Shown one piece after another: positions 20,276-22,475 of a DNA stretch of 49,755 nt (positions are counted from its first letter, which is position 1; every line of letters begins with the position of its first letter). The notes under the pieces are model-generated. The model was not told the origin of the DNA, searched no databases, and was given only the letters and a program-made list of their open reading frames with translations. The DNA lies in assembly GCA_016185345.1 (NCBI GenBank), contig JACPNS010000001.1:1-49755 (forward strand). The letters are read 5' to 3'. Position numbers and translations under genes: made by a program. This DNA comes from Solirubrobacterales bacterium (GTDB taxonomy: Bacteria; Actinomycetota; Thermoleophilia; Solirubrobacterales; JACPNS01).

Positions 20276-21637
20276 CTACAAGATCGGCAGATAACGTTCA
20301 AGCTCCCACTGCGTGACCTGCGTGCGGTAGCTCTCCCACTCGTTGCGCTTGATTTCGATGAAGCGCTTGAACATGTGCTCGCCAAGCGTGCGCAGCACGA
20401 GTTCAGAGGCCGAGGCGATCTCGACGGCTTCTCCCAAGGTCTCCGGCAGGTGTTCGACGCCCAGGCGACGGCCCTCCTCGGAGTTCAGGTGGTAGAGGTT
20501 CTTCTCCATTGGTTCGGGCAGTTCGTAGCCCTTTTCGATTCCTTCGAGTCCAGCCTGAAGCAGTGCGGCAAAGGTCAGATACGGGTTGCACGCCGGGTCC
20601 GGGCAGCGCAGTTCGGCGCGCATCGCCTGTCCGTCGGCGTTTGAGCCGGTCGAGCGGTACGGAGGGACGCGCACCAGCGCAGAGCGGTTGCGGCGCGACC
20701 AGGCGAGGTACACTGGCGCCTCAAATCCCGGCACGAGGCGCTTGTACGAGTTGACCGACTGGGCAAAGATTGCGCAAATCTCGCGGGCGTGTGTGAGCTG
20801 GCCGGCGATGAAGGCCTTGCCGGTCTCTGAGAGCTTGTAGCGGTCGTTCTCGTCGTAGAAGGCGTTCTTGCCGTCCCTGAAGAGCGACTGGTGGGTGTGC
20901 ATGCCTGAGCCGTTCTCATCAAAGAGCGGCTTGGGCATGAAGCTCGCGTGGTAGCCGTACTGCTGGGCGTACTCCTTGACGACGATGCGGTAGGTCATGC
21001 AGTCGTCGGCCATCTTCATTGCGTCGGCGTAGCGCATGTCGATCTCGTGCTGCGAAGGGCCAGCCTCGTGGTGGGTGTACTCGACGTGAATACCCATCTT
21101 CTCGAGGGCGAGCACGGTGTCGCGGCGAATGTCTGAGCCGGCGTCGAGCGTGGTCAGGTCGAAGTAGCCGCCGGTGTCTAGCGGAACCGGGCCGGCGCCG
21201 GGCACGACCTCGCTGTCCTTGAAGTAGTAGTACTCGAGCTCCGGGGCGACGTTGAAGACATCGAAGCCCATGTTCTGAGCGCGCTGAACGGCGCGACGAA
21301 GTGCGTGGCGCGGGTCGCCCTCGTACGGCTGAAGGTCCGGGGTGACGATGTCGCAGAACATTCGAGCTACGCCCTGCTCTTCTGGACGCCATGGAAGGAT
21401 CGAGAAGGTCGATGGGTCCGGCATCGCGACCATGTCGGACTCTTCTATTGCGTTGAAGCCGGTGATCGAGGAGCCGTCAAAGCTCGCGCCACCATCGAAG
21501 GCGTCGCGCAGCTCGGCGCTGTTGATCGAGAAACTCTTGAGCTGACCGAGGATGTCGGTGAACCAAAGTCGCACGAAGCGAATGTCGTGCTTCTCGACCT
21601 CGCCGAGAACATTTACGGGCGTTTTTGTATCCGGCAC
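20276..21637 (-). CDS. glnA: Glutamine synthetase, type I
   Basis: Makes glutamine from glutamate, ammonium and ATP. The 453 residues include the beta-grasp (VRLWFTDILGQLKSF), the latch DGSSITGF, metal ligands in PELEYYYF and HHEAGPSQHEID, the ATP region GSGMHTHQSLF and NRSALVRVP. Near the C terminus KNLYHLNSEE keeps a Tyr but lacks the usual adenylylation context NLYDLPPEE. The length and that region suggest a GSI-alpha-like, possibly non-adenylylated enzyme. Start is a GTG preceded by AGGAGAGG. It is 98 bases downstream of the riboswitch-controlled membrane protein gene. Confidence 0.95.
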   Translation of the reverse strand: MPDTKTPVNVLGEVEKHDIRFVRLWFTDILGQLKSFSINSAELRDAFDGGASFDGSSITGFNAIEESDMVAMPDPSTFSILPWRPEEQGVARMFCDIVTPDLQPYEGDPRHALRRAVQRAQNMGFDVFNVAPELEYYYFKDSEVVPGAGPVPLDTGGYFDLTTLDAGSDIRRDTVLALEKMGIHVEYTHHEAGPSQHEIDMRYADAMKMADDCMTYRIVVKEYAQQYGYHASFMPKPLFDENGSGMHTHQSLFRDGKNAFYDENDRYKLSETGKAFIAGQLTHAREICAIFAQSVNSYKRLVPGFEAPVYLAWSRRNRSALVRVPPYRSTGSNADGQAMRAELRCPDPACNPYLTFAALLQAGLEGIEKGYELPEPMEKNLYHLNSEEGRRLGVEHLPETLGEAVEIASASELVLRTLGEHMFKRFIEIKRNEWESYRTQVTQWELERYLPIL

Positions 21638-21735
21638 GGGCCTCTCCTGGAATCAGCGGCGCGACGGATCGATCGCACCGGGGCGAATCCTAGTGGGCTG
21701 AGCGCGCGGACGCTCGACCGTGTTGGACAGCTTGC

Positions 21736-22146
21736 TCAGGTACCGGTGGCGATCGCTACGAGAATCATGAAGACACCCATGAACAGCGCCCACTGGGCGG
21801 CGCGGTCGGGGCGACGGTCGTAGCGGTCGATCTGCACCGCGAGGCTGCGCTGAGCATTTCGTCTTTGGACACCGCTGCGGCGCGGCGGAGTGGCTTGGCC
21901 AGAGATCTTGACGGTGCGGACGCCATCGGCGTCGATGCGGGACTTCTCTTCTACTGGGGCGCGGCGAGCGCGCTCGGGGCGAGGTGCGTGGGATTCTGCG
22001 CGACGAGCGCGCGCGGCGGCGCGGTCGTAGCTCGCGTGAGCGCGCGGCTGTAAAGACGTGCGAACACCACCCCTCTGATCAGAAGGGCGACCGTACGTCT
22101 CTAGATCGTGCTCATCACCGATGACCGGCTCGCGAAACGAACTCAC
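21736..22146 (-). CDS. Arginine-rich protein with single C-terminal membrane anchor, c-di-AMP riboswitch-controlled
   Basis: A 136-residue protein I cannot assign to a family. Residues 1-110 are polar, disorder-like and very rich in Arg (AAARARRAESHAPRPERARR), and the last 20 (AAQWALFMGVFMILVAIATG) form one membrane helix, so it would be tail-anchored with a basic cytoplasmic domain. The GTG start lies about 7 bases after a GAGGAAG ribosome site that borders the 3' end of a c-di-AMP aptamer. Riboswitch control argues that the gene is real and tied to cell-wall or osmotic homeostasis. A role in binding nucleic acid, teichoic or lipid phosphate is speculation. Confidence 0.7.
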   Translation of the reverse strand: MSSFREPVIGDEHDLETYGRPSDQRGGVRTSLQPRAHASYDRAAARARRAESHAPRPERARRAPVEEKSRIDADGVRTVKISGQATPPRRSGVQRRNAQRSLAVQIDRYDRRPDRAAQWALFMGVFMILVAIATGT

Positions 22147-22149
22147 TTC

Positions 22150-22318
22150 AGTGCTTCCTCTTTCATAGTGCTTACGGGGTTAGCTGACGGACTCGCGAGA
22201 AAGAGTCTCGCTACGCGCCGGACGTGAGTCCTTTGCGATTCGCCCCTGCCATTTATGCCGAATGGCATCAATGACACTGGGTCCCCCGCGTCTTGAACGA
22301 TTCTGCAGGCCTAAGTGC
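22150..22318 (-). promoter_or_regulatory. c-di-AMP riboswitch (ydaO/yuaA class)
   Basis: Read on the minus strand, the region carries in order the conserved core elements of the ydaO aptamer: GCGGGGGACCCA, then AGGGGCGAATC, a variable hairpin with GGACTCACGTCC, and GAGTCCGTCAGCTAACCCC continuing into GTAAGC. A ribosome site (AGAGGAAG) follows immediately, before the GTG at 22146. In Gram-positive bacteria this class turns genes off when c-di-AMP is high, typically K+ uptake and wall-hydrolase genes. Outer limits are approximate. It occupies most of the otherwise gene-free stretch 22147-22475; I see nothing else definite in the remaining 150 bases. Confidence 0.93.
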
Positions 22319-22475
22319 AAAATCAGACTTCAGCGGATACTGGAGCAGGATGCTAACAAGGCTGCCCGACGACTGTCCACCAAAAAACCTGCAAATCCCC
22401 GCAAAATGGCGAAAATTAGCTCGAACGAACGGCCTTATTGGTAAACCTGGACCCGGTTGCTAGCTTTGCGCGCCG

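What the first reader, a model, noticed from the sequence alone, without database searches (positions are those of the whole stretch)
21736..22318. c-di-AMP riboswitch controls an uncharacterised arginine-rich tail-anchored protein upstream of glutamine synthetase
The ydaO-class core is complete (GCGGGGGACCCA; GTCAGCTAACCCC). The downstream gene encodes a 136-residue protein, basic and disordered with one C-terminal helix, that fits no usual c-di-AMP target (K+ transporters, wall hydrolases). glnA lies 98 bases further on the same strand and could be co-transcribed, which would link c-di-AMP to nitrogen assimilation.
Basis: partly seen in the sequence, partly recalled or inferred. Interest (0 to 1): 0.75.

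Follow-up and report, generated by a model that had tools for sequence, protein, structure and literature searches.

The report
c-di-AMP switch on enzyme-less wall anchor
A real c-di-AMP-sensing RNA switch sits in front of a small membrane protein that is the membrane-anchor half of a cell-wall protein with the wall-binding and enzyme half missing, and the neighbouring glutamine synthetase gene very probably has its own promoter, so this is wall biology rather than a nitrogen link.

Summary
An RF00379 (ydaO) c-di-AMP aptamer lies at 22317-22153(-) (61.5 bits, E 6e-12), 6 nt before a 136-aa ORF (22146-21736), with glnA 98 bp further on. The interpretation changes. The ORF belongs to an order-wide family (Solirubrobacterales): an Arg-rich tail, a conserved (R)RTVxIxG motif, and a C-terminal membrane helix (RPDRxAxWA...). 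In at least eight relatives, at the same riboswitch-glnA position, this module continues into PG_binding_1 and RlpA-type DPBB 'lytic transglycolase' domains. So the window protein is the anchor half of a riboswitch-controlled wall protein. It is under purifying selection (dN/dS 0.11). The genome's four other c-di-AMP riboswitches precede wall enzymes (two RlpA-like, one M23, one NlpC/P60-like). The aptamer's pseudoknot strand (GAAAGAG) overlaps the Shine-Dalgarno sequence and covaries across relatives, which implies a translational OFF switch acting on this ORF only. The glnA link is not supported: a TAGGAT -10 element is invariant in the diverged 98-bp spacer (5/5 genus genomes; 31/38 order loci against about 5 expected), and in one relative riboswitch and module sit 31 kb from glnA. 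The stand-alone anchor's function is unknown; my guess is a docking adaptor.

The parts
22350..22355 (-). Putative promoter -10 (TAGCAT) of the riboswitch transcript
   Evidence: Promoter scan TGGACA-18-TAGCAT; TAGCAT, TAACAT or TAAGCT at the same place in the five genus genomes. Inferred only.
22153..22317 (-). c-di-AMP riboswitch aptamer (ydaO/yuaA, RF00379)
   Evidence: cmscan 61.5 bits, E 6.2e-12, full length; found at the same place in all genus mates
22199..22205 (-). Pseudoknot 5' strand CUCUUUC (hairpin loop and its closing base)
   Evidence: 7 Watson-Crick pairs with 22164-22158; covaries across 88 riboswitches
22158..22164 (-). Pseudoknot 3' strand GAAAGAG, overlapping the Shine-Dalgarno GAGG (22160-22157)
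   Evidence: sequence
21736..22146 (-). 136-aa riboswitch-controlled ORF: Arg-rich tail, VRTVKISG motif, C-terminal membrane helix; enzyme-less anchor module of an RlpA-like wall protein
   Evidence: ORF; dN/dS 0.11; module HMM links it to PG_binding + DPBB fusions
21898..21921 (-). Conserved cytoplasmic motif VRTVKISG (residues 76-83); family consensus (R)RTVxIxG
   Evidence: alignment A3: R, T and I invariant, G at least 90% in 17 homologues
21739..21801 (-). C-terminal membrane helix (residues 116-136, AAQWALFMGVFMILVAIATGT) after PDR
   Evidence: P-D-R-x-A-x-W-A invariant in the alignment; lies between cytoplasmic tail and wall domains in the fused homologues
21687..21692 (-). Putative -10 (TAGGAT) of glnA's own promoter
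   Evidence: invariant in 5/5 genus genomes within a diverged spacer; similar hexamer in 31 of 38 order loci against 4.7 in shuffles
20276..21637 (-). glnA, type I glutamine synthetase (neighbour; probably not a target of the switch)
   Evidence: TIGR00653, 520 bits against cut-off 429; Pfam Gln-synt_N and Gln-synt_C

Best explanation
The leader is a c-di-AMP riboswitch of the ydaO class. It most likely turns translation of the 136-aa ORF off when c-di-AMP is high: ligand binding stabilises the aptamer pseudoknot, whose 3' strand GAAAGAG overlaps the ORF's ribosome-binding site. The ORF encodes the cytoplasmic tail and single membrane helix (N-in, C-out) of what in several relatives is one protein with extracellular peptidoglycan-binding and RlpA-like domains. 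In this genus and most of the order the extracellular half is absent and the anchor stands alone. It is kept by selection and, like four wall-enzyme genes in this genome, sits behind a c-di-AMP riboswitch. Most likely role: a membrane docking or adaptor piece of the c-di-AMP-controlled wall-remodelling set. Shown by computation: riboswitch identity, shared ancestry of the module, purifying selection, covariation of the pseudoknot. Inferred: translational OFF mode, topology, ancestral state. Guess: the adaptor role. glnA is a conserved neighbour with its own promoter.
For: RF00379 hit. The genome has five RF00379 hits and one diadenylate cyclase gene, PF02457, E 6e-26. The other four riboswitches precede RlpA-like (two), NlpC/P60-like and M23 genes. 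Module HMM built from 31 truncated proteins finds the fused proteins L250 1.5e-19, L253 1.4e-14, L215 3.8e-12, G019 1.8e-10, G011 5e-10, L240 6e-9, G013 2e-7, L244 3e-7, and none of the NlpC or M23 targets. Pfam on four of these fusions: PF01471 and PF03330. Pseudoknot: 88 riboswitches, mean complementary run 6.5 nt against 4.25 with shuffled tails; 30 variant-loop riboswitches 6.27 against 4.64 with permuted partners, 0 of 2000 as high. dN/dS 0.11. Own glnA promoter element. Riboswitch stays with the module in G032. Literature: the C. glutamicum nlpC riboswitch acts on translation and only on the first gene (PMC9960051).
Against: No binding, expression or localisation data exist. A Streptomyces rpfA riboswitch of this class is reported to act by transcription termination (PMC10117811), so a translational mode is not certain here. 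Direction of evolution (repeated loss or repeated fusion) is not settled: fused forms are scattered on the glnA tree (6 rows, at least 5 forced changes) and the DPBB tree is poorly resolved. About ten named loci keep the module without a detectable riboswitch, so c-di-AMP control is not essential everywhere. Nothing tests the adaptor role.
Confidence: 0.62

Rival explanations
1. The riboswitch controls an operon ORF-glnA and so links c-di-AMP to nitrogen assimilation.
For: Same strand, 98 bp gap, no terminator found between; co-directional riboswitch-module-(CMD-HxlR)-glnA order is kept in many relatives.
Against: Invariant TAGGAT in an otherwise diverged spacer in the genus and a promoter-like hexamer upstream of glnA in 31 of 38 order loci against 4.7 expected. 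Riboswitch and module absent upstream of glnA in 25 of 81 rows. In G032 the riboswitch stays with the module, away from glnA. SD masking acts on the first gene only, as shown for C. glutamicum (PMC9960051).
Confidence: 0.1
2. The stand-alone ORF is a decaying remnant of a wall protein, kept only by recent common descent and without function.
For: It lacks the PG-binding and DPBB domains of its fused homologues; the N-terminal tail is highly variable.
Against: dN/dS 0.11 between G000 and G001 and about 0.11 over the last 60 codons between G002 and G003; motif and helix kept in families f1, f2 and f3; riboswitch, SD and start codon kept.
Confidence: 0.12
3. The module is a stand-alone signal peptide or leader peptide that regulates its neighbours by translation coupling rather than acting as a protein.
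For: In fused homologues the helix is followed by AxA-like signal-peptidase sites; some loci have only 28-86 nt to glnA.
Against: Sixty to 160 nt and a promoter element separate it from glnA in this genus; amino-acid conservation of a cytoplasmic motif far from the start codon.
Confidence: 0.07
4. The riboswitch works by transcription attenuation, not by masking the ribosome-binding site.
For: Streptomyces rpfA switch reported to terminate transcription (PMC10117811).
Against: No terminator-like hairpin between aptamer and ORF; pseudoknot strand overlaps the SD here, and across relatives lies just before the start codon.
Confidence: 0.2

Closest known systems
ydaO/yuaA c-di-AMP riboswitch (Rfam RF00379; solved RNA PDB 4QLM/4QLN as cited in PMC5393176)
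   Same: Full-length covariance match, same core sequence, same loop-to-3'-tail pseudoknot
   Different: The pseudoknot's 3' strand overlaps the Shine-Dalgarno sequence; no terminator-type expression platform was seen
Corynebacterium glutamicum nlpC riboswitch (PMC9960051)
   Same: Actinobacterial ydaO switch before a wall gene; translational OFF with RBS pairing proposed there
   Different: Here the product is a membrane anchor without enzyme domain; pseudoknot supported here by covariation, there by reporters
Streptomyces rpfA and other riboswitch-controlled wall hydrolases (PMC10117811)
   Same: c-di-AMP switch on wall-remodelling genes
   Different: Reported transcription termination; target is an enzyme
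RlpA-like wall proteins (PG_binding_1 PF01471 + DPBB_1 PF03330) behind the same riboswitch at glnA in relatives (G011, L253, L250, L215, L240, L244, G013, G019)
   Same: Shared N-terminal tail motif and membrane helix, same locus, same riboswitch
   Different: The window protein stops at the end of the helix and has no extracellular domain

Membership tests
ydaO/yuaA c-di-AMP riboswitch (RF00379) | Covariance-model match above the gathering score | tested here: met
   61.5 against 38 bits, E 6.2e-12, positions 1-134
ydaO/yuaA c-di-AMP riboswitch (RF00379) | Conserved core strings of the two ligand pockets | tested here: met
   GCGGGGGACCCA, GGGGCGAAUC and CCGUCAGCUAACC present; same strings in the solved RNA (PMC5393176)
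ydaO/yuaA c-di-AMP riboswitch (RF00379) | Loop to 3'-tail pseudoknot | tested here: met
   CUCUUUC/GAAAGAG, 7 pairs in the window; covariation in relatives
ydaO/yuaA c-di-AMP riboswitch (RF00379) | Binds c-di-AMP | not testable with these tools
   The genome does encode a diadenylate cyclase
RlpA-like (DPBB_1) wall proteins | DPBB_1 domain PF03330 | tested here: not met
   No Pfam hit above cut-off in the window ORF
RlpA-like (DPBB_1) wall proteins | Peptidoglycan-binding domain | tested here: not met
RlpA-like (DPBB_1) wall proteins | N-terminal anchor module homologous to that of the fused RlpA-like proteins at this locus | tested here: met
   module HMM matches fused proteins at 1.5e-19 to 3e-7
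Riboswitch-controlled glnA operon | glnA depends on the riboswitch transcript (no promoter of its own) | tested here: not met
   Sequence evidence only: conserved -10-like element in the spacer; transcripts not mapped
Riboswitch-controlled glnA operon | No terminator between ORF and glnA | tested here: met
   Pattern scan
Tail-anchored membrane protein | Single hydrophobic helix at the extreme C-terminus, N-terminal part cytoplasmic | tested here: inconclusive
   21 uncharged residues at the C-terminus after an Arg-rich tail; topology inferred from fused homologues whose C-terminal domains bind peptidoglycan; no topology predictor or experiment

The most novel reading that the evidence does not exclude
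A c-di-AMP-controlled, enzyme-less membrane adaptor: the anchor half of a wall protein that in several lineages stands alone and works in trans, docking or limiting the other riboswitch-controlled wall enzymes through its conserved cytoplasmic (R)RTVxIxG motif.
Probability: 0.3. Interest if true: 0.65.

Novelty: new variant of a known kind. Interest (0 to 1): 0.42.

Why it matters
In Actinobacteria, c-di-AMP riboswitches are known to sit before wall genes (PMC9960051). Here the same switch has been kept on a protein that lost, or never had, its wall domain, across a whole order. That suggests the regulated thing includes the membrane anchor and its cytoplasmic motif, not only hydrolytic activity, and it gives a defined motif to test. 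The covarying pseudoknot that overlaps the ribosome-binding site supports, on sequence grounds, the translational mechanism proposed for one Corynebacterium switch. It also removes an attractive but weak claim that c-di-AMP controls glutamine synthetase here.

Tried and rejected
Riboswitch control of glnA: tested by spacer conservation, hexamer enrichment and synteny breaks; not supported. Known family for the ORF: Pfam and NCBIfam gave nothing above cut-off (the IHABP4_N match at E 0.66 is a composition artefact). Wider spread of the module: 18 of 28 order genomes, but 0 of 92 other genomes of the class; phylum-level hits were weak, and the one I read (L275, E 2e-5) is a transglutaminase-like protein with a chance Pro-Asp-Arg helix. 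A tree of DPBB domains to date the fusion was too poorly resolved: one origin with repeated loss is allowed, not shown. The minimum-energy fold of the leader without pseudoknots does not show the aptamer fold and is only weakly more stable than shuffles (z -1.3); it was not used. Structure prediction was not run because the protein is largely low-complexity with one helix.

Full report
Observation. The window holds a complete c-di-AMP (ydaO/yuaA) riboswitch at 22317-22153 on the minus strand (61.5 bits, E 6.2e-12). The 136-aa ORF starts with GTG at 22146 and ends at 21736; glnA follows at 21637-20276. The gap of 98 bp is as stated. The ORF has no Pfam or NCBIfam family above cut-off. It is nevertheless a real protein: against the nearest genus mate the substitutions fall 13/6/44 on the three codon positions, dN 0.073 and dS 0.64, and the last 60 codons show the same constraint.

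The organism and its other switches. The named relatives closest by glnA are Solirubrobacterales and Thermoleophilaceae metagenome assemblies. The genome has five RF00379 hits and one diadenylate cyclase gene. The four other switches precede genes for two RlpA-like DPBB proteins, an NlpC/P60-like protein (weak Pfam match; assigned by its motif) and an M23 peptidase. In a census of 104 riboswitch loci from the order, the first gene carried a wall-enzyme signature by simple motif rules in about 70 cases (32 NlpC/P60-like, 19 M23, 17 DPBB including three fusions, two or three transglycosylase-like); about 20 were the module described here; the rest were unassigned or mis-called. The rules are crude and the counts approximate.

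What the ORF is. Homologues sit behind the riboswitch at the glnA locus across the order. They share a variable Arg-rich tail, a motif (R)RTVxIxG and a C-terminal helix starting RPDRxAxWA; R, T, I, P, D, R, A, W and A are invariant in 17 sequences. In some relatives the same protein continues after the helix into PG_binding_1 and DPBB_1 domains (G011 285 aa, L253 483 aa, G013 241 aa, L240 295 aa by Pfam; L250, L215, L244 and G019 by sequence). A profile built only from the short forms finds these fusions at E 1.5e-19 to 3e-7 and finds none of the NlpC or M23 targets. So the window protein is the anchor half of a riboswitch-controlled wall protein. On the glnA tree of 81 rows there are 31 riboswitch+short, 10 short without a detected riboswitch, 6 riboswitch+fused, 3 riboswitch+DPBB only and 25 with neither; the fused state needs 6 changes, at least 5 forced by supported branches. 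I read this as repeated loss of the outer half, because truncation is easier than repeated identical fusion, but the domain tree does not settle it. Absence of a riboswitch in that table rests on a sequence profile and may miss weak ones. The module is confined to the order in the genomes sampled (18 of 28 against 0 of 92 in the rest of the class).

How the switch works. In 88 riboswitches the loop of the hairpin before GUCAGCUAACC is complementary to the stretch just after P1, over 6.5 nt on average against 4.25 with shuffled tails. In the 30 with a variant loop the match to their own partner (6.27) exceeds that to permuted partners (4.64, 0 of 2000 as high), with pairs such as CUUCUUC/GAAGAAG, CUCCUUU/AAAGGAG and CUCGUUC/GAACGAG. 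Permutation does not model relatedness, but the variants are scattered over families. The solved ydaO RNA printed in PMC5393176 has the same complementarity (CUCCUUCG/CGAAGGAG, my reading). In the window the pair is CUCUUUC 22205-22199 and GAAAGAG 22164-22158, which overlaps the ribosome-binding site GAGG (22160-22157) 10 nt before the GTG. A ligand-stabilised pseudoknot should therefore block translation of this ORF. That is the mechanism proposed, with reporter evidence that only the first gene is affected, for C. glutamicum nlpC (PMC9960051). Streptomyces rpfA is reported to use transcription termination (PMC10117811); no terminator-like hairpin was found here.

glnA. In the five genus genomes the spacer between ORF and glnA is diverged except for an invariant TAGGAT (window 21692-21687), a good actinobacterial -10 by general knowledge. 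A TA[GA][GC]NT hexamer lies upstream of glnA in 31 of 38 loci of the order against 4.7 (maximum 13) in shuffles. In most of the order a CMD-family gene and an HxlR-type regulator lie between module and glnA. In G032 the riboswitch and module are 31 kb away while a CMD gene and glnA stay together without a riboswitch. So the switch travels with the module. Some read-through into glnA remains possible.

Verdict. The riboswitch is an ordinary member of RF00379, found where such switches are expected, among wall genes. The unusual part is the target: a stand-alone membrane anchor derived from, or ancestral to, a wall protein, kept by selection under c-di-AMP control in most of an order. What it does is not known; docking of the wall-remodelling set is my best guess and is untested.

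Noticed in passing
window 24580-24120 (-): RNase P RNA (class A, 198 bits) lies close upstream of the riboswitch-glnA region; the same neighbourhood recurs in many order genomes (L083-L086, L088, L092, L093, L100, L101, L107, L112-L115, L117, L118).
   Followed up: partly
window 22341-22328 (-): A 14-nt element TATCCGCTGAAGTC between the putative promoter and the aptamer is invariant in all five genus genomes, apart from one base in G004; part of it (CTGAAGT) recurs between the ribosome-binding site and the start codon of the ORF. Unexplained.
   Followed up: no
L087, L089, L090, L091 and others, upstream of glnA: A CMD (carboxymuconolactone decarboxylase-like) gene and an HxlR-type regulator sit between the module and glnA in most of the order, a possible redox-sensing pair; both are missing in the window's genus.
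   Followed up: no
L106 and L105 (G032): Riboswitch and module have moved 31 kb from glnA, a natural separation of switch and glutamine synthetase.
   Followed up: partly
L240 and L224: Contigs labelled Bifidobacterium breve and Chlamydiae carry Solirubrobacterales glnA loci, so the record titles look wrong.
   Followed up: no
L227 (Paraconexibacter antarcticus, NZ_CP098502.1): A named isolate keeps the module upstream of glnA without a detected riboswitch; useful as an experimental organism for the protein.
   Followed up: no
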